A stretch of DNA of 35,594 nt from a virus. The notes under the pieces are model-generated. The model was given only the letters and a program-made list of their open reading frames with translations, had not been told where the DNA came from and searched no databases. The translations under genes were made by a program, and so were the position numbers. The DNA lies in IMG/VR virus record IMGVR_UViG_3300032753_000100, positions 1 to 35,594 of that record. One strand, given 5' to 3'. This document shows positions 5,974-33,516 of the stretch, one piece after another. Numbering within the stretch: position 1 is the stretch's first letter; each line of letters begins with the position of its first letter.

Positions 5974-6360
5974 TTATTCAGAAACACCACCCTCCATAGT
6001 TTTTGCCCTAATATCAACCAACTGTTCTTCTGTCAATATTTTTAATGCTTGCTTAGCTTTGATACCAGAATACCCAAAATACTTCTTGACACATACTAAA
6101 TCATCAATATCACTATATTTTTGCCATTGTTGAAATTTTCTTTTCATCGATCTTACTGAATTCAATAAATATTGGTATTGCATATCTTTATCAATACCAT
6201 GATACATATTGATTTCATTAGCATAGAATATACAATCCATATGATATGAAAGTGCTCTATTCACTATAAATGGGACATACTCCTTCCTATCTAGCTCATC
6301 ATTTATGACACATTTCTTTGTTACTAATATTGAATGTATAATATCCTTAAATAGATCCAT
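5974..6360 (-). CDS. 62: Clamp loader small subunit (T4 gp62)
   Basis: A 128-residue protein in the position and with the general character of gp62. It starts MDLFKDI, like T4 gp62 MSLFKDD, and has a helical middle with YVPFIVNRALSYHMDCIFYANEIN that fits the T4 region [21 protein letters not shown]. T4 gp62 is longer (187 aa); T4-likes of aquatic hosts carry a short form. It forms the loader with four gp44 subunits to place the gp45 clamp. I chose the ATG at 6358-6360 rather than the one at 6364-6366, because GAGG is 8 nt from the former and almost touches the latter. Its start lies inside the last codons of the endonuclease VII-like gene, so it is coupled to it. Confidence 0.85.
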   Translation of the reverse strand: MDLFKDIIHSILVTKKCVINDELDRKEYVPFIVNRALSYHMDCIFYANEINMYHGIDKDMQYQYLLNSVRSMKRKFQQWQKYSDIDDLVCVKKYFGYSGIKAKQALKILTEEQLVDIRAKTMEGGVSE

Positions 6361-6763
6361 TATCATTACCTCTTAAATAGTCGATTGCTCTATATAATAT
6401 CTCAATATCATCATCAAATACACCAAGACCTCTATTGCAATTATGACACAACCAGCCCCTAAATTTTTCAGTTTTATGGTCATGGTCAATCACCCAGGGA
6501 CTAATTTGTGATGTACCTCCAGCATGTATTAACGAACCCCAATCAGAATTACATATTGGGCATATGTAATCTTTTCCGGGTTTTCCATGTTGGGCTAGTA
6601 AATATTTCCTAGTTTTGCTTAAATGGCTATTACATTTCCTACACTCTGTTCGTAGATAATTTCCACCACTACTCTTCGGATATTCAGAAAAGTGTTTTTT
6701 CTTATTACACTTAACACATGTTTTATATTCGTGTGATGTATCATTGCCCCAAAGATCTAACAT
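6347..6763 (-). CDS. Endonuclease VII-like His-Me finger nuclease
   Basis: A 138-residue nuclease of the recombination endonuclease VII/HNH type. An N-terminal CxxC pair (C16, C19 with C41, C44) is followed by the catalytic unit: C68 and C71, DHDH at 93-96, then C106 and C109 (RGWLCHNCNRGLG), ending in the typical DDIEILYRAIDYL helix. T4 endo VII (gp49) has the same Zn-bound DH core but also a C-terminal dimer/junction domain that is absent here. The gene sits between 44 and 62, overlapping the first by 1 nt (TAATG) and the second by 14 nt. That placement, in a cluster normally contiguous, suggests a freestanding homing endonuclease; a true junction resolvase is the alternative. Confidence 0.85.
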   Translation of the reverse strand: MLDLWGNDTSHEYKTCVKCNKKKHFSEYPKSSGGNYLRTECRKCNSHLSKTRKYLLAQHGKPGKDYICPICNSDWGSLIHAGGTSQISPWVIDHDHKTEKFRGWLCHNCNRGLGVFDDDIEILYRAIDYLRGNDNGSI

Positions 6764-19051: not shown

Positions 19052-20551
19052 ATGAAATATTCTCAAGAACTTATCGATCTATGTCTATCCAAGACAACAC
19101 AGCAAATTTCAAAAACTCCACTATATCGTGAGTTATTAATAAACCAAACCAAATTCCTAGATAATGTGTCTGGAGTTGTGTTAGGGACTAGAAAATATTG
19201 TGTAAATAACAATATACACGAAATTCCTAAGTGTAAAAGTTGTGATAGTTTTTGTACTGTGAACAGACTTAATTCTAAACTTGGGTTCACTACATACTGC
19301 TCACCAAAGTGTTCTAGAGCATCAAAAACCGTCATTAAAACTGTGGAGGTGCTACTTAGTAATAGGGATTGGTTGTACAATGAAAGAATAGTGTTGAAAA
19401 AATCTAAGGAAGTTATAGCAGAAGATCTTGGTATCTCTATCACTCCTGTGAACAAGTGGCTAGGCATTCATAACATACCAAATATCAAATATAATTGCTC
19501 ACATCCAAGTGCCGTAATGAAATTGTCGGATAAAGATTGGATGTATGATGAGCATAAAAATAAACATAGAACATGTTCTGATATAGGAGTTGAACTTGGT
19601 GTTAGTAAAAGCATGGTATCTGTATGGTTGGCCACACACAATATAATGGCGAATGAAGCAAATTCATATGATAGATTATCCAATAAAAGTTCCGCTGAAT
19701 GTGCTGAAGTTTCTGATTACATAAAATCCATATATGAAGGGGAAATACAATTAGATAAACGTGGTGTTATCGGATCATTAGAATTGGATATATATCTTCC
19801 AGAAATAAAATTAGCCATTGAGTATAATGGATTATATTCACACATTTATAGGCCAGAAGAATCTAGCTTTTCTGGTAGAAAGGATAGTAACTATCACTAC
19901 ACAAAAACTAAACTTTGTAATGAACAAGGCATACAATTGCTGCACATATTCTCTGATTCTTGGAAAGAGAGGTCGAGTGTGTGGAAGTCTTTCATCAGCA
20001 ATAAATTGCACAACAATCAGTACAAAATATTTGCTCGTAAATGTATAATAAAAGAAATATGTGTCAGTGATAAGAATAATTTTCTTGATGATAATCACAT
20101 ACAAGGAAAAGATAAGAGTAGGTTTAAGTATGGTATGTTTTTTGGTGAAGACCTTGTAGCTGTCATGACGTTTGGGGTGTCAAGATATTCAAAGAAATAT
20201 AAATGGGAGTTGATTCGTTTTGCTATCAAGAAAAATTACTGTGTTGTTGGAGCATTCTCTAAACTACTAAAACACTTTAGGAAAAATAATGAAGGGTCTA
20301 TTATATCGTATGCCGACAGAACTTATTCCAATGGGGACGTATATATTAACAATGGATTCACATTAATAGCAACCAATAAACCTGGATATCATTATGTGGC
20401 CAAGAATGTCGAGAAGAGATTACATAGATCTAATTTTGTTAAGTCTAAGATTTCGGTATTTGGGGACACTAGAACTGAACAAGAGATTATGTTTGATATG
20501 GGATATTCTAAAATATATGATTGTGGTACGCTTTCTTTTGCTATTTGGTAG
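19052..20551 (+). CDS. Vsr-like homing endonuclease with HTH repeats and a GNAT-like C-terminal domain
   Basis: The only plus-strand gene, 499 residues. In order: a zinc finger (C61, C64, C83, C87); two similar DNA-binding modules at about 101-143 and 157-200, each with WLY/WMY-[ND]E followed by a helix-turn-helix (EDLGISITPVNKWL, VELGVSKSMVSVWL); a nuclease core from 242 (SLELDIYLPEIKLAIEYNG) with E244, D246, E257, H264 and H282, of the Vsr/EDxHD or PD-(D/E)xK type; and a C-terminal domain from about 340 (KYGMFFGEDLVAVMTFG, SIISYADRTYSNGDVYINNGF) resembling the Mom-like GNAT fold. Freestanding endonucleases of this sort spread next to conserved phage genes; this one abuts gene 23. AGGAAA precedes the ATG; a weak TTGATA/TATACT pair lies at 18996-19022. 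Confidence 0.75.
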   Translation: MKYSQELIDLCLSKTTQQISKTPLYRELLINQTKFLDNVSGVVLGTRKYCVNNNIHEIPKCKSCDSFCTVNRLNSKLGFTTYCSPKCSRASKTVIKTVEVLLSNRDWLYNERIVLKKSKEVIAEDLGISITPVNKWLGIHNIPNIKYNCSHPSAVMKLSDKDWMYDEHKNKHRTCSDIGVELGVSKSMVSVWLATHNIMANEANSYDRLSNKSSAECAEVSDYIKSIYEGEIQLDKRGVIGSLELDIYLPEIKLAIEYNGLYSHIYRPEESSFSGRKDSNYHYTKTKLCNEQGIQLLHIFSDSWKERSSVWKSFISNKLHNNQYKIFARKCIIKEICVSDKNNFLDDNHIQGKDKSRFKYGMFFGEDLVAVMTFGVSRYSKKYKWELIRFAIKKNYCVVGAFSKLLKHFRKNNEGSIISYADRTYSNGDVYINNGFTLIATNKPGYHYVAKNVEKRLHRSNFVKSKISVFGDTRTEQEIMFDMGYSKIYDCGTLSFAIW

Positions 20552-27439: not shown

Positions 27440-29185
27440 TTAGATTGCACCAACAACTTCAGAGAAATTGACTGCTGTCCCAACTGCTACAAAATTTAAT
27501 TTTATGAAGTTAATGCTTCTTGCTGGTTTAATGTAAATGTCACCAACAAATTGATCATTATCTATAACATAACCTGTGTTATTAGTAGTATCACAAACAA
27601 CTTTAAAGTCTGTGATGCCACGTCTGCCCTGAACATCTCTTAAGAATGGTGATACTAATGAGATGAATTGTGCACGAGTAAAATCATCATTGAATTCGAA
27701 CAATGAATATTTCGCAGCAAGAGCAATAGCTTTTTCCAACACTATAAACAATCTTCTAACATTGATTCTATCAAATGCTGATGGTTTTGCTTGAAGCGTT
27801 TTGTCACCATATAAAATGATGCCATTACCAGGGAAAGAAACAACTGGATTTACACCTTGTGGGTATAAAATGTCACGATTCATTTGGTTAGGATTCCATG
27901 CTAACTTAACAGCATTCTTGATATTACCACGATTATATCCAGCAGGTGACCACCAAGGATCTCGGATAGCATCCGTGAATGCGCATAAACCAGCAACATC
28001 ACCGTTTAATGGAACCCAACGATAAACATTATTGTACTTGTCATACATATATTTCCAACCAGAATCAACAACAGAATATGAAGATGATCGTTGTAACCCT
28101 GTTGATTGGCCTGTTAACCATGTTAATATGTTTGTTGCTTCAGAACCAGATTGGTTAGCAACAGCAGATAATGGTGGTGAAATAAATGCTACACTATCAC
28201 CGGAACGACCAACAACACTACCCGCAGGTGTTACAATATCATCAATAATGTATTGTAATACTGTAACATCCGCATCGCCTGTGATGATTAGTGATACATC
28301 AATTTGATCTTTATTCTCAAAGAGGCTATATGCTGAGATTAAATCCCCATCAGCAACAGCAGCATCAGTACCACCAGAAAGTTGGATGTCAGTTTCACCA
28401 TCAACACTATATGCTCTAGCGAAAGTTGTATTTGCTGCAGTAAGACCCCAAGTTGATGCTGTATTAGCATAATCGACTGGATCAATTGCATAGATGTATT
28501 TTGATTGTGATTCCAATACATTTTTGTAATAAGTAGAAACCCCATTGCCGTCAATAGCATCAATTGCTTTTGAAACATATGGATATACTTCTAAAATAGA
28601 GCCTTTGATGCCTGTGATTAAACCTAAAGAATCTGAAACCACAATATGGATTTCATCATTAGCACCACCAGCAGTAGCAACATATGAAGATGTTGTTGTT
28701 GGGCCACTAAAATTACCAGCAAACTCCCATGCTTTAAATAGTGTAGTGTTAGCAGAATCCCATACATCAATCAATAAAGAATTTCCTAATGCCCCAGCAT
28801 ATCTAGCAGCAAAAGCACCTAATGTATTTTGTGCTCCGCTATGGAAATATTGATAATCATAAATTGATTTATTTGCTATTTGCACATTTGTTGAAGATGT
28901 GTTAGCATCGGCATTATGACTATTAGCACTTAATGCACGAACAACTCTCAAATCATTACCATATGCTAGAAAACTAGATGCGGTCATGAATGAAATTGCA
29001 GTATTATTGTTTGGCGCACCGAAAGTTACCGATAATTGATTTTCGTCAGATACTGGTATTGCTTCTAATGCAGGTCCCCAAACAAAATTTCCAGCGAATG
29101 CGCCAGTAGATGAAGATACCGCAGGTACAACTGTTGTTAAATCATACTCTGTTACACTTACACCTGGAGATAACTGAATTGCCAT
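27440..29185 (-). CDS. 18: Tail sheath protein (T4 gp18)
   Basis: A 581-residue contractile sheath protein (T4: 659 aa). MAIQLSPGVSVTEYDLTTVVPAVSSSTGAFAG is the conserved opening and GAFVG-type strand. The middle contains a protruding domain rich in Ser, Ala and Thr, and the C-terminal core has RDPWWSPAGYNRG, NQMNRDILYPQGVNPVVSFPG and FDRINVRRLFIVLEKAIALAAKY, the classic sheath signature. It ends with the strand region that links subunits. A late promoter lies 53 nt upstream with an AGGGGA ribosome site. Confidence 0.96.
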   Translation of the reverse strand: MAIQLSPGVSVTEYDLTTVVPAVSSSTGAFAGNFVWGPALEAIPVSDENQLSVTFGAPNNNTAISFMTASSFLAYGNDLRVVRALSANSHNADANTSSTNVQIANKSIYDYQYFHSGAQNTLGAFAARYAGALGNSLLIDVWDSANTTLFKAWEFAGNFSGPTTTSSYVATAGGANDEIHIVVSDSLGLITGIKGSILEVYPYVSKAIDAIDGNGVSTYYKNVLESQSKYIYAIDPVDYANTASTWGLTAANTTFARAYSVDGETDIQLSGGTDAAVADGDLISAYSLFENKDQIDVSLIITGDADVTVLQYIIDDIVTPAGSVVGRSGDSVAFISPPLSAVANQSGSEATNILTWLTGQSTGLQRSSSYSVVDSGWKYMYDKYNNVYRWVPLNGDVAGLCAFTDAIRDPWWSPAGYNRGNIKNAVKLAWNPNQMNRDILYPQGVNPVVSFPGNGIILYGDKTLQAKPSAFDRINVRRLFIVLEKAIALAAKYSLFEFNDDFTRAQFISLVSPFLRDVQGRRGITDFKVVCDTTNNTGYVIDNDQFVGDIYIKPARSINFIKLNFVAVGTAVNFSEVVGAI

Positions 29186-29237
29186 TTTTTTCCCCTTGAT
29201 TAAAATTACTATATTGATACATTAAATATCATAGTAT

Positions 29238-29245
29238 TATTTATA
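29238..29245 (-). promoter_or_regulatory. T4-type late promoter for genes 18-19
   Basis: Exact TATAAATA on the minus strand in the 75-nt gap after the terminase gene, 53 nt before the start of gene 18. Confidence 0.75.
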
Positions 29246-29260
29246 TAAAACTTGTTCTCA

Positions 29261-31048
29261 TCAATACATCATCAACTCACGAAAAAACCCAGCATATACT
29301 TCACCACTATCAGCCTTTTCCCAGACATCACCATCCATAACTTCAAATGTTGTTTTCATCCCATCTTCTATGATTGGTGCCGGTAAAGTTTCATCATCAA
29401 CTTGATTCATATTCTCAAGTTGAATTTGTTTTCTTATGTCATGTGCTACAATATCTCTGAAATATTTTTGTGTTGTAACCCACGCAAATATGACAAGTGT
29501 CATTGCTAAATCATCATTTGCATCTGATTCTGCTGCAAATGATGTTTTATTAGCTACAAATGTTGTTAATTCTGATATAGTTTCAAAATCAGTAACTTGT
29601 AATTTATTCCCTTCGATGAGTGTCTTTAGATTAGAACAACCAATTCTCTTAACTGCTGGGGACATTTTAAGTCCCATCTGAACACCTCTACCAAAACCAC
29701 CACATAATTGCTGTGGTTTCTTATTACCAGTAAAAATCTTGAATAAGTTCTCGTATTCCAGATCTTGGTGTATGATGTCCGCGACTTGAGGATTATTATT
29801 TATCTCAACTAATATATATGCGTCATTATATAATCTGGCTGCATTGTAGATTACTGTGGGGAATAATATTGGTGATATATTAGCATTTGAATATGTTGCA
29901 ACTTGTCTATATGGTGTTGATGAAATGTCAAAAACCGAGAACGCTGAAGCATCCATATTTCTGCCTTCCGAAACATCAACAGCGATACAATATAGATGAT
30001 CTTTTGCATTATCCTCGTCCCCTCTAATTGGATGTTCGTATATTTTTACGTCATCATGTTGTGTTATTGGGTCTAGGAATGATAATTGTTGCAGCTTAGA
30101 ACTTGATATTAGGGTGTTTGTACTACCCAAAAAGTTCGTATTAAATTCTTGGTCAAAGTTATGGTCACCAATATTTTTTCGAGTTTCTTCTTCCCAGACA
30201 TCATCACGACCAGGAACTTGTGACCAGTGAACTTCAAATGGGACATAATTATTACGTTTATTGATAGCATCTGTCCATAACTTATAGAACAGGTTCATGC
30301 CATTTGGTGTTGAAACTATGATAATCTTTGTTTTAGTACCAGCGGTAATAACCGGATACACAGATTGCATAAACTCATTAGCAATGCTTGAAGGAACGAA
30401 GGCAAATTCATCCAAAAATACTAGATTATATGAGCCAGATCTAGCTGCTGATGATGATGTTGATGAAGCAACAATCTTTGAACCATTTTCTAATTCAATA
30501 AAACTCTTGTTCCATGTTACGATACCTTGCTGGAGCCATATCGGAAGATTTTCGTATGCTAGTTGAAGACGAGCAAGAATATCTCGCGCAGTTTGTCCTT
30601 TATTGGCAAGTATTGCGGCTGAATAAGAATCTTGAAATAATATACACCATAATAGAAATGCAACAGAAGTTGTGGTGTTGTGTGATAAGATATCATTTGT
30701 ATAGAATCTATGATTTGCAGAATCTACGGTGATATCATACATATTCTCATCATATCCTAAATTCGACACCGATATTACTAATTCAGTACCACATTTAGTG
30801 ATAATTTTGGATTTTCCTGGTGATAGATCCTTTACAAAAATCTCTTCATAATCTTCTGTGAATACTATATGGTCATCAGCACAGTCTAAAATCAAACCAG
30901 ATTCGGTTACTAACCTATAAACTGTATATGCTATTGTTTTGTGGATTTGTGTGACGTCATGCCAACCAGTATCAGTTTCTATTTCCCAATCGGAGATATC
31001 AAAAGATTCTTCGAACTTTCTCGTTACTGTATCAGAAATTGTATGCAT
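29261..31048 (-). CDS. 17: Terminase large subunit, C-terminal part, preceded by a split-intein C fragment (T4 gp17)
   Basis: 595 residues in two parts. Residues 1-124 are the C-terminal piece of an intein: block B is GLILDCADDH (H60), block F is ENMYDITVDSANHRFYTND (102-119), block G is ILSHN with H123 and N124. The next residue, T125, starts the terminase extein with TTTSVAFLLW. From there on the protein is gp17: Walker B NLVFLDEFAFV, coupling motif IIIVSTPNG, and the RNase H-like packaging nuclease IAVDVSEGRNMDASAF, VEINNN and NDDLAMTLVIFAW. The Lys and upstream half of the P-loop are in the gene at 31117-31494. The frame differs from that gene's, and TAA stands directly before its ATG, so it starts afresh; the ribosome site (AAGAAA) is weak. 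Confidence 0.93.
   Translation of the reverse strand: MHTISDTVTRKFEESFDISDWEIETDTGWHDVTQIHKTIAYTVYRLVTESGLILDCADDHIVFTEDYEEIFVKDLSPGKSKIITKCGTELVISVSNLGYDENMYDITVDSANHRFYTNDILSHNTTTSVAFLLWCILFQDSYSAAILANKGQTARDILARLQLAYENLPIWLQQGIVTWNKSFIELENGSKIVASSTSSSAARSGSYNLVFLDEFAFVPSSIANEFMQSVYPVITAGTKTKIIIVSTPNGMNLFYKLWTDAINKRNNYVPFEVHWSQVPGRDDVWEEETRKNIGDHNFDQEFNTNFLGSTNTLISSSKLQQLSFLDPITQHDDVKIYEHPIRGDEDNAKDHLYCIAVDVSEGRNMDASAFSVFDISSTPYRQVATYSNANISPILFPTVIYNAARLYNDAYILVEINNNPQVADIIHQDLEYENLFKIFTGNKKPQQLCGGFGRGVQMGLKMSPAVKRIGCSNLKTLIEGNKLQVTDFETISELTTFVANKTSFAAESDANDDLAMTLVIFAWVTTQKYFRDIVAHDIRKQIQLENMNQVDDETLPAPIIEDGMKTTFEVMDGDVWEKADSGEVYAGFFRELMMY
30677..31048 (-). other. Split intein, C-terminal fragment (124 aa)
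   Basis: Codons 1-124 of the gene above. It carries nearly all intein blocks (B, F and G) and ends in His-Asn before the +1 Thr. Only the region around block A is missing, which lies on the other gene. This proportion fits the atypically split inteins described in phage terminase genes (such as AceL-TerL), where the N fragment is very short. No homing endonuclease domain is present. Confidence 0.88.
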
Positions 31049-31116
31049 TTATCAATTGTTTCTTGTTTATCATTATTATAATCAACTTAGCCTATGTGTA
31101 ATACTTAATAGTTTCG

Positions 31117-31494
31117 TTAATGATCGTTCGACAAATCTGTACTATGTTTAATGCTATCATAAAAATCTCCTATAGAGGTTTCTATTATGTCACCAGTTGA
31201 TTTATTCCTCAACTTTATAGTAGAATTTATACATATACATTTTCCAGATTGGCGACCCAACTTGGAGATTATAAATCTATTATCATTAAAAGTTCGAATC
31301 ATATCTTTCTGGAAATCATACATTTCATACGGCACTAGGCCATGATCCAATGTTATGATTTTCATGTATTTAGAGAAGTATATTGGATCTCTTGAACATT
31401 TTACATATTCTTCTACCTGTTCCTGTGTATATTGTACAGAAACTCCAACTTTCTTTAAATTACCATTATCGCGATATGCTGTAGACACTGCCAT
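31117..31494 (-). CDS. 17: Terminase large subunit, N-terminal part, fused to a split-intein N fragment (T4 gp17)
   Basis: 125 residues. Residues 1-85 are the N-terminal part of the packaging motor: DPIYFSKYMKIITLDHGLVPYEMYDFQKDMI, then ISKLGRQSGK, the first half of Walker A. C86 then begins an intein N fragment (CICINSTIKLRN, block A, to residue 125). After splicing to the gene at 29261-31048 the P-loop reads GRQSGKTTT, and the whole protein is about 556 residues (T4: 610). The gene ends in TAA at 31117-31119. The ATG overlaps the gene 16 stop (TAATG), so the N part is coupled to the small terminase. Confidence 0.93.
   Translation of the reverse strand: MAVSTAYRDNGNLKKVGVSVQYTQEQVEEYVKCSRDPIYFSKYMKIITLDHGLVPYEMYDFQKDMIRTFNDNRFIISKLGRQSGKCICINSTIKLRNKSTGDIIETSIGDFYDSIKHSTDLSNDH
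31120..31239 (-). other. Split intein, N-terminal fragment (40 aa)
   Basis: Codons 86-125, starting with the nucleophile Cys directly after the P-loop Lys. Only block A (CxxxxxTxIxLRN) is contained. The break comes before block B, unlike the usual split near the endonuclease site. The remaining 28 residues are polar and end in an Asp/Asn/His-rich tail that may help bind the C fragment. Confidence 0.85.
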
Positions 31495-31895
31495 TATTCA
31501 CCTTTTAATAATTTGGATAGCTCTGATGTTGAACCTACAAAGATGGCTTTGTCTATCTTTGTGCCAGATTCTTTCTTGTTGTCCATTTCACGCATTTGTT
31601 TTTGCGTGGCAATCAATTCTTTATTAGCCTCTACTACATTTTTTAATAATGTACCAAATACCTCAAATGCTCTTGGTTGCTCGGATTCTTTTGCTATTCT
31701 CAAAATATCATCAAGTGCGTCTTTGCCTTGATATATGATATCCTGAAGATTGTCGCGAGACTGTTGATATGCATCAGATAGATCTTGTTCTAGATTTATA
31801 TGTGGAGTATAATCTTTTATTATTATCGGTTTATCTTCAATAATAGTAGGATTGATATCAAATATCTTTGACATTGAATCATCAAATTTAGTCAT
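31494..31895 (-). CDS. 16: Terminase small subunit (T4 gp16)
   Basis: A 133-residue protein (T4: 164 aa). The coiled-coil core DLSDAYQQSRDNLQDIIYQGKDALDDILRIAKESEQPRAFEVFGTLLKNVVEANKELIATQKQM is characteristic of T4-type small terminases, with the E.PRAFEV segment conserved in cyanophage versions. It forms a ring that binds phage DNA and stimulates gp17 cleavage and ATPase activity. The C terminus (TSELSKLLKG) is a short helix. It precedes gene 17 by overlap and follows gene 15 after 2 nt. Confidence 0.92.
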   Translation of the reverse strand: MTKFDDSMSKIFDINPTIIEDKPIIIKDYTPHINLEQDLSDAYQQSRDNLQDIIYQGKDALDDILRIAKESEQPRAFEVFGTLLKNVVEANKELIATQKQMREMDNKKESGTKIDKAIFVGSTSELSKLLKGE

Positions 31896-31897
31896 AA

Positions 31898-32635
31898 TTA
31901 ATTATATTCTTGTATTGTTACGTTTGCTGTCCAAGAAGAATTTGCTGTTGCATCTAAAGGATTTGGAACTATATTTATTTTCACTCTTTCAGCATCATTA
32001 TCCATGTCTATCACATTTGTAATTGCTTGTTTAATCAATCCGGCAGTAGTCACATCTCTATATAGGAATGCTTTTGCTTTGAAATTCAATGTCCATATAA
32101 CCATTCTTGTGTCAGATTCACTATCACCTTCATATGTTATATCATAGCTAGTGTCGGCTAATATAATAGGGATCTCTTTAGTGATATTCATTTCAGGTAT
32201 CAGATCAATCTTTATCGTGTAATCTGGTGTGAAGAACGGTAATATATATTCTATGATTTGAGTACCATCTTCAATATTTCTAACATAAATGTATAATGAA
32301 TAATCTATATCATAGGGGACTGGGTTATATTGTGTATTGATGGTACCAGAACCAACCTGATTGAAATTCTTAATATTTGTGTTTTGCTTTCTCGACGCAT
32401 CATAAGAAATACCGGTCATCTCAAATGACATTCTTGGTAGTGTCATTTGGATTTTCTTGTCCGCATCAGGATCACCTTGTAACCTCATCACATATAATTC
32501 TTTTCCTGCGTGTGCAATAGGTACTATAAAACGTTCTTGTTCAGTTTCATCTGGATGGTAACGAACCAGAGTAATATTCGAAAATAGATCAGAAAACACT
32601 GTAGTGATATTGCGAATAACTCTATTGTATGCCAT
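31898..32635 (-). CDS. 15: Tail sheath stabiliser / proximal tail terminator (T4 gp15)
   Basis: A 245-residue protein (T4: 272 aa). DLFSNITLVRY..DETEQERFIVPIAHAGKE matches T4 DLFSNIQIKRQ....KFIRVPITYASKE. TLPRMSFEMTGISYDASRKQN matches TLPRINLHLVDFSYNAPFKTN. QYNPVPYDIDYSLYIYVRN and the QIIEYILPFFTPDY segment complete the alignment. Six copies cap the tail tube and join it to the head. The late promoter at 32667-32674 lies inside the end of gene 14 and 32 nt before the ATG; the start overlaps the gene 14 stop (TAATG). Confidence 0.94.
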   Translation of the reverse strand: MAYNRVIRNITTVFSDLFSNITLVRYHPDETEQERFIVPIAHAGKELYVMRLQGDPDADKKIQMTLPRMSFEMTGISYDASRKQNTNIKNFNQVGSGTINTQYNPVPYDIDYSLYIYVRNIEDGTQIIEYILPFFTPDYTIKIDLIPEMNITKEIPIILADTSYDITYEGDSESDTRMVIWTLNFKAKAFLYRDVTTAGLIKQAITNVIDMDNDAERVKINIVPNPLDATANSSWTANVTIQEYN

Positions 32636-33516
32636 TATAATGATCCAAATGAATTGATTTCAGATGTATTTATAATATTACTAGCTGTTGTATTAATGAA
32701 AGAATTGTCATAATTCTCTTTAATAGCAGGAGATTGTAACGGGTCAAATGTTGTTAATAAGTACTGAGCATTACTAGAACTTCCTATGATATTTTCATCA
32801 TCATAGAATTCACCAAAGATATTAGATACTGATAATATGCGGGACGATGGTATCCAAGATTGTACTGTACCAGAAGCAGTAGCATTAGCTAATGTATTGT
32901 CTGGTGATTGGAACACTATTTCTTTTATTGCGTATGTCCCAGTGCCCATACCCGTATTCAAGTGTAATGTATATGCTGAATCTGTAACGACAGAATCTAT
33001 ATCTGGCATACCGGTGTTGATAATCTCTTGTGAATATTTGAATTTTTCCATTTCCAATTCATAAAAGTATGGCACCTTTCTACCAAGCATATTGAAGTCT
33101 TTGTTCTGATTAGTGAACTTTATTTCATACAATTCACCAACACCATTGGTAACTGGTATGTAAACGAGATCTCCTTCTCGGGGTCTTGTGAATGAATTTT
33201 GTGGCACTCTCTGTGAGAATGCCCGTTTAGATAAAATTACACTGACGGTGTTCTTAATTTCCAGACCAAACTTAGAGAAAAAGTCCTTCTCTCCACCGTA
33301 GTCTGATATGTTAGAGAGATACATCTCAACAGCAAATGCTGATTCGAATTTCTTTACTGGATCTTCTCCGTATAGCAAATCTCTTGCTTGGTCGTTGTCA
33401 TTTGCCAAATAGAACGCATCAAATCCCATGATTTTAATGCTTTCACAAATCAAATCCTCGATGATTCGTTGCTCACCCACATTATTGTAATTGCCGAAGT
33501 AATGAGAAATTGCCAT
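32635..33516 (-). CDS. 14: Neck protein (T4 gp14)
   Basis: A 293-residue neck protein (T4: 256 aa). The opening IIEDLICESIKIMGFDAFYLAND, GEDPVKKFESAFAVEMYLSN and the GGEKDFFSKFGLEIKNTVSVIL segment match T4 LVAESIQMRGVECYYVPR, GEDLKNKFTKAWKFAAYLN and GAKSFFSNFGMQVQDEVTL. PREGDLVYIPV and the LYEIKFTNQN strand follow in the same order. The C-terminal 130 residues are more variable and acidic. It forms the neck with gp13 and closes the packaged head. A TATAAATT element (33535-33542), one base off the late consensus, is 19 nt upstream; AGGAAT is the ribosome site. Confidence 0.93.
   Translation of the reverse strand: MAISHYFGNYNNVGEQRIIEDLICESIKIMGFDAFYLANDNDQARDLLYGEDPVKKFESAFAVEMYLSNISDYGGEKDFFSKFGLEIKNTVSVILSKRAFSQRVPQNSFTRPREGDLVYIPVTNGVGELYEIKFTNQNKDFNMLGRKVPYFYELEMEKFKYSQEIINTGMPDIDSVVTDSAYTLHLNTGMGTGTYAIKEIVFQSPDNTLANATASGTVQSWIPSSRILSVSNIFGEFYDDENIIGSSSNAQYLLTTFDPLQSPAIKENYDNSFINTTASNIINTSEINSFGSL
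32667..32674 (-). promoter_or_regulatory. T4-type late promoter for genes 15, 16 and 17
   Basis: Exact TATAAATA on the minus strand inside the 3' end of gene 14, 32 nt before the gene 15 start. Confidence 0.65.

What the first reader, a model, noticed from the sequence alone, without database searches (positions are those of the whole stretch)
30677..31239. Packaging ATPase split inside its P-loop by an early-split trans-splicing intein
Gene 17 is in two genes. The first ends with GRQSGK followed by a 40-residue intein N fragment starting with Cys; the second begins with a 124-residue intein C fragment ending HN followed by TTTS. The cut falls exactly between the Walker A Lys and Thr, so no ATP-binding loop exists until the proteins splice. 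The split before block B is of the rare, early-split kind known from phage terminase inteins. The two reading frames are separated by 68 bp with stop codons in all relevant frames, so it is not a single sequencing indel.
Basis: partly seen in the sequence, partly recalled or inferred. Interest (0 to 1): 0.9.

Follow-up and report, generated by a model that had tools for sequence, protein, structure and literature searches.

The report
Terminase split by endonuclease-less trans-splicing intein
A T4-like phage makes its DNA-packaging motor as two separate proteins that a split intein should stitch together in the middle of the ATP-binding loop; it is a good new example of a known kind of element, here one that has lost most of the selfish endonuclease gene that once sat in the gap.

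Summary
Gene 17 is in two reading frames: 85 residues ending GRQSGK plus a 40-residue intein N piece, then a 124-residue intein C piece ending SHN plus TTTS and 471 terminase residues. Intein-free relatives (L027, 84% identical) run straight through GK-TTT. Related inteins sit at the same Lys|Thr/Ser point in many phage terminases: in one piece in Ackermannviridae, in two pieces in dozens of metagenomic phages, and also in gp46-like, DnaB-like and Clp-like ATPases. Most split relatives carry a 320-430 codon homing endonuclease gene overlapping both halves. The window does not. Its 68-bp spacer and flanks keep the first ~22 and last ~19 codons of such a gene, so the middle was deleted. The nearest terminase relatives show the other two states: L118 (90%) with endonuclease, L027 without intein. 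Splicing residues are conserved, the C piece is under purifying selection, and its model matches VidaL and Cat, atypical split inteins. Best reading: a working, early-split class 1 intein that lost its endonuclease. It is a new member of a known kind ('fractured genes'; GOS-TerL and AceL-TerL are similar but have Cys at +1, so another site). Splicing itself is untested.

The parts
31240..31494 (-). TerL (gp17) N-extein, 85 aa, ending in Walker A GRQSGK
   Evidence: phrog_5989 terminase E 6e-19; aligns to intein-free TerL L027
31120..31239 (-). intein N fragment (IntN), 40 aa, starts with nucleophile Cys1, block A CICINSTIKL
   Evidence: 45-71% identical to IntN of relatives
31117..31119 (-). 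stop codon of the N gene
31049..31116 (-). 68-bp spacer between the two genes, stops in all frames
31092..31160 (-). remnant of homing endonuclease gene start: MIALNIVQICRTIINETIKYYT* in the frame overlapping IntN and spacer, like MNILEITQICQTIAKETNKY of L118
   Evidence: 0 of 1000 shuffles as good for L002 or L118
31024..31086 (-). remnant of homing endonuclease gene end: VDYNNDKQETIDKCIQFLIQ*, overlapping the start of IntC, stop at the same offset (+24) as in most relatives
   Evidence: profile E 2e-9; 0.003-0.004 with the overlapping codons left out
30677..31048 (-). intein C fragment (IntC), 124 aa, blocks B (ADDH), F and G (SHN)
29264..30676 (-). TerL C-extein, 471 aa, starting TTTS; rest of ATPase plus nuclease domain
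   Evidence: Pfam Terminase_6N 1e-14 and Terminase_6C 4e-8
31494..31895 (-). gp16, small terminase subunit, directly upstream (context)
   Evidence: Pfam DNA_Packaging 3e-10

Best explanation
The large terminase is made as a 125-aa and a 595-aa precursor. The 40-aa IntN docks into the 124-aa IntC to complete a HINT fold. Cys1 attacks the Lys-Cys bond, the chain is passed to Thr+1 of the C-extein, Asn124 cyclises with the help of His123, and a 556-aa terminase with a complete Walker A loop (GRQSGK-TTTS) is released. This is the class 1 route with Cys1/Thr+1. The element came in as a 'fractured gene' with a homing endonuclease gene nested between the halves; here the middle of that gene was deleted while splicing was kept, because the terminase is essential. 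Shown: two genes, exact insertion point, intein homology, conserved catalytic residues, purifying selection on IntC, endonuclease scar. Inferred: splicing, its speed, and essentiality.
For: Exact Lys|Thr insertion against empty relatives. IntC invariants in 15 relatives include A57 D58 H60 and S122 H123 N124; A57, D58, H60 and SHN also hold in the contiguous phage inteins. In every family member where the N piece was found the junction is GK|Cys/Ser and IntC...SHN|Thr/Ser. The same intein is in one piece at the same site in Vibrio phages Kuja, VAP7, VPALA and Dickeya phage LIMEstone1, so the N and C pieces belong together. AF2 model of IntC pLDDT 90; best PDB matches VidaL (2.5e-7), then gp41-1, with Cat also found. 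Profile hits to VidaL 2.5e-12 and CatC 7.5e-9. dN/dS of IntC about 0.07-0.24 against relatives, dS near saturation. Endonuclease scar. No RNA intron. Nearest terminases: L118 (C-extein 90%) with a 431-codon endonuclease gene, L027 (84%) empty.
Against: No splicing experiment. The window is one metagenomic contig of 35.6 kb, so another intact terL elsewhere in that phage cannot be excluded. Block B has Ala where most inteins have Thr (ADDH), though all relatives share this. IntN is too short for a firm dN/dS (0.3-0.95, 28 codons).
Confidence: 0.9

Rival explanations
1. Decayed element: the intein no longer splices and this terL is a pseudogene; the phage is defective or uses another terminase.
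For: The endonuclease gene has clearly decayed. Only part of the genome is held.
Against: Both extein parts are full length and conserved, IntC shows low dN/dS and all splice residues are intact. Flanking genes gp13-gp23 are intact.
Confidence: 0.05
2. Assembly or sequencing artefact that broke a contiguous intein-containing terL or dropped the endonuclease gene.
For: Single metagenomic contig; contiguous versions exist in other phages.
Against: Different frames with several stops; endonuclease ends on both sides in the right order; other terminase contigs (L141, L142, L173) and Agrobacterium phage Atu_ph07 are split with short gaps too, and phage PhiW-14 looks alike.
Confidence: 0.03
3. The insert is removed at the RNA level (group I or II intron) rather than by protein splicing.
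For: Phage ICP1 splices its terminase mRNA (PMC10448857).
Against: No Rfam match on either strand in 28000-33500; 492 of the 563 bp code for conserved intein protein.
Confidence: 0.01
4. The split is kept as a control: the packaging ATPase stays off until both precursors are made or until conditions allow splicing.
For: The cut removes the complete ATP loop from both halves, so neither precursor should hydrolyse ATP. Similar regulatory ideas are discussed for mycobacteriophage TerL inteins (PMC5050341).
Against: Scattered presence with closely related empty sites (L027), spread over unrelated ATPases and association with endonucleases fit a selfish element.
Confidence: 0.07

Closest known systems
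Fractured genes: split inteins with an endonuclease gene between the halves (Dassa et al. 2009; cited in PMC11766414, paper itself not held)
   Same: Phage genes broken at an intein, halves in separate genes; most family members here have an endonuclease gene in the gap, some with a Vsr-like/MTES_1575 C-terminus.
   Different: In the window that gene is deleted down to its two ends; the split is between blocks A and B.
GOS-TerL and AceL-TerL split inteins (and engineered Cat)
   Same: Terminase hosts, early split (37/115 and 25/104 aa; here 40/124), class 1 chemistry.
   Different: Those use Cys at +1; this one has Thr+1 at Walker A Lys|Thr. L013 carries both kinds: this one at GK|T and a CatC-like one (3.8e-8) at |CEFQGS.
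Contiguous TerL inteins of Ackermannviridae (Kuja, VAP7, LIMEstone1)
   Same: Same family (42-46% identity in IntC) and same Lys|Thr site.
   Different: One open reading frame, no split.
Mycobacteriophage TerL1-a inteins (PMC5050341)
   Different: Contiguous, other terminase family; sequence relation not tested here.
VidaL and gp41-1 split inteins (PDB 6vgv, 6qaz)
   Same: Best matches by fold and sequence.
   Different: 20-27% identity in the fold alignments; their insertion sites were not compared.
Delftia phage PhiW-14 and Agrobacterium phage Atu_ph07 terL
   Same: Isolated phages with terL in two adjacent frames or genes at this intein and no endonuclease between.
   Different: Far in sequence (IntC about 40%); Atu_ph07 starts IntN with Ser.

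Membership tests
class 1 intein | Nucleophile Cys or Ser at position 1 | tested here: met
   Cys after GRQSGK; Cys in nearly all relatives found
class 1 intein | Block B TxxH or equivalent | tested here: met
   ADDH60; His invariant, Thr replaced by Ala in the whole family
class 1 intein | C-terminal His-Asn and Cys/Ser/Thr at +1 | tested here: met
   SHN|TTTS; invariant SHN, Thr or Ser at +1
class 1 intein | HINT fold | tested here: met
   AF2 model of IntC pLDDT 90, Foldseek to many inteins, best VidaL 2.5e-7; the N piece could not be folded together with it
naturally split intein, atypical (early) split | N and C pieces in separate genes, cut before block B | tested here: met
   40 aa / 124 aa, different frames, stops between
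naturally split intein, atypical (early) split | Trans-splices | not testable with these tools
   needs co-expression
fractured gene (split intein plus endonuclease gene in the gap) | Endonuclease gene between the halves | tested here: not met
   68-bp gap; only the two ends of such a gene remain. Relatives such as L118 and L002 meet it
GOS/AceL-TerL subfamily | Same insertion site, Cys+1 | tested here: not met
   Thr+1 at Walker A; known ones have Cys+1

The most novel reading that the evidence does not exclude
This is one family of early-split inteins specialised on the Lys|Thr/Ser step of the Walker A loop. It moves between unrelated phage ATPases (terminase, gp46-like, DnaB-like helicase, Clp-like), carries exchangeable endonuclease genes in the gap, and several lineages, the window among them, have independently dropped the endonuclease yet stayed split.
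Probability: 0.7. Interest if true: 0.55.

Novelty: new member of a known kind. Interest (0 to 1): 0.42.

Why it matters
It gives a clean snapshot of the homing cycle in one small group of terminases: empty site (L027), intein with endonuclease (L118), and intein with the endonuclease deleted but its ends still readable (window). It also offers a new early-split intein with a short N piece and Thr+1, of practical use for protein labelling, and shows that once split, a gene can stay split after the endonuclease is gone.

Tried and rejected
RNA intron: no Rfam match. Frameshift or single indel: all frames have stops. Free-standing endonuclease at 19052-20551 as the partner of this intein: no blastp similarity to the gap endonucleases, so rejected. 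A near match in isolated phages: none over the region. Folding N and C pieces together was not possible (a joined sequence is not the window's own). Dassa et al. 2009 is not in the held library, so details of that paper rest on citations. A first Pfam call failed on wrong ends. The first endonuclease-end profile held a few wrong rows and was rebuilt from 27 clean ones. 'No N piece found' for 13 loci reflects a strict pattern and contig ends; several (L117, L128, PhiW-14 L111) do have it on inspection.

Full report
What is there. On the minus strand, between gp16 (31494-31895) and the tail sheath-like gene (27440-29185), gene 17 is in two reading frames. The first (31117-31494) has 85 terminase residues up to GRQSGK and 40 more starting with Cys. 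The second (29261-31048) begins with 124 residues ending ILSHN and goes on with TTTS and 471 terminase residues in all (Pfam Terminase_6N and 6C; PHROG terminase). The insert is 563 bp. The spacer is 68 bp with stops in all frames.

Empty site. TerL genes from other viral contigs that are 70-84% identical run without a break through GK|TTT. The closest empty one is L027 (84% over the C part). So the insert boundaries are exact and the insertion point is Walker A Lys|Thr.

It is an intein. The C piece matches Pfam Intein_splicing weakly and TIGR01443 above its cut-off, gp41-1 by single-sequence search, and VidaL, gp41-1 and CatC by profile. The AF2 model of the C piece (15 sequences, pLDDT 90) is best matched by VidaL. 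The same protein family is contiguous in Ackermannviridae: in Kuja, VAP7, VPALA and LIMEstone1 the terminase reads ...RQSGK-C...SHN-TT... in one frame. That shows that the two pieces in the window are one intein cut between blocks A and B.

The family. With the C piece and with an alignment of its relatives I fetched about 100 loci, partly the same contigs. Among distinct C pieces whose N piece was found, 43 were split with a gap of 0.9-2.5 kb, mostly holding one endonuclease gene of about 320-430 codons that overlaps both halves; 9 were split with a gap under 400 bp, including the window; 5 were contiguous. Of the nine, the window, L115, L141, L142, L163, L166, L173 and L192 have gaps under 100 bp; L149 has 363 bp. 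All sit at GK|Thr/Ser. Hosts are terminase, gp46-like (AAA_23/SMC), DnaB-like helicase, and ClpB/ClpX-like AAA proteins. So this is a P-loop intein family in unrelated ATPases.

The scar. In the window the reading frame that starts at 31160 reads MIALNIVQICRTIINETIKYYT and stops; the endonuclease of L118 starts MNILEITQICQTIAKETNKYNK and that of L002 MNKQKIIQICQQICNETNKYNK. None of 1000 shuffles scored as well for either. The frame that ends at 31024 reads VDYNNDKQETIDKCIQFLIQ and stops 24 bases past the IntC start, as in most relatives. A clean profile of 27 endonuclease ends finds it as the single strong hit in the six-frame translation of the whole window (E 2e-9; next 0.8). When the codons that overlap IntC are left out, it is still the best hit (E 0.003-0.004). 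Part of the N match also overlaps IntN coding sequence; the part past the N stop is NETIKYYT against NETNKYNK. The two remnants are 5 bp apart. The middle of the gene, roughly 1 kb in relatives, is gone.

Relatives by tree. IntC of the window groups with L118, L002 and L117, all terminase inteins with endonuclease genes (96/99 support). The first 80 residues of the C-extein put the window beside L027 (empty) and L118 (with endonuclease), support 93/86. Over 469 residues the window is 90% identical to L118. The window's scar looks like an L118/L002-type start and a Vsr-type end; L117 has such an end.

Is it still working? Substitutions in IntC fall mainly on third positions and dN/dS estimates are 0.07-0.24, with dS near saturation. 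Catalytic residues are intact. IntN is too short to judge. The second gene starts at the same place as in relatives. No T4-type late promoter (TATAAATA) was seen in the spacer, so both halves are probably on one transcript (inference).

Compared with what is known. TerL split inteins with short N pieces are known and have been shown to splice: GOS-TerL 37/115 aa with Ser1/Cys+1, AceL-TerL 25/104 aa with Cys1/Cys+1 (PMC11766414). P-loop Lys|Thr insertion is described as a classic site for contiguous inteins in mycobacteriophage TerL (PMC5050341). Split inteins separated by an endonuclease gene are the 'fractured genes' of Dassa et al. 2009 (cited in PMC11766414 and PMC7090010; not readable here). 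What is particular here is the combination: P-loop site, early split, and the endonuclease reduced to readable ends. I found no paper that describes this family, but the library lacks most subscription journals, so I do not claim it is undescribed.

Verdict. It is ordinary in kind, good as an example, and its most interesting aspect is the homing-cycle triad (L027, L118, window).

Noticed in passing
window 19052-20551 (+): Free-standing homing endonuclease gene (499 aa, PHROG 3339 E 8e-99) on the opposite strand between a 176-aa gene and gp23; not related by blastp to the endonucleases of the terminase inteins.
   Followed up: partly
window 6347-6763 (-): 138-aa Cys/His-rich protein with an HNH/endonuclease VII-like look (CPICNSDW...DHDH...CHNCN) between the gp44-like clamp loader and a 130-aa gene.
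   Followed up: no
L044 3176-5806, L054 392-3022, L055: A different, contiguous intein with Ala at position 1 and LAGLIDADG-like motifs (looks class 3) at the same GK|TTT site of close terminase relatives: the site is invaded independently.
   Followed up: partly
L025 1484-4516 and 1830-2786: A 318-codon Vsr-like endonuclease gene lies in another frame wholly inside one open 1010-codon terminase-intein frame; about 330 codons of the intein linker are the endonuclease read out of frame without a stop.
   Followed up: partly
L002, L013/L015, L114 (Campylobacter phage CP21): Terminase gene interrupted at more than one intein; L013 is in several pieces, with a third site at |CEFQGS whose C piece is like CatC (E 3.8e-8).
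   Followed up: partly
L003 2838-3425; L025 891-1484: A second, diverged terminase-ATPase-like gene of about 195 codons just upstream of the split terL (in L003, tblastn 25-33%); its P-loop looks degenerate (RQIGMTSA, RRSGITTM).
   Followed up: no
L010, L183, L172, L192: Same split intein family at Walker A Lys|Thr/Ser of gp46-like, DnaB-like, ClpB-like and ClpX-like proteins.
   Followed up: partly
L111 (Delftia phage PhiW-14), 1900-2900: Isolated phage whose N half of terL (with intein N piece) is unannotated; the two halves are in the same frame separated by two stop codons.
   Followed up: partly
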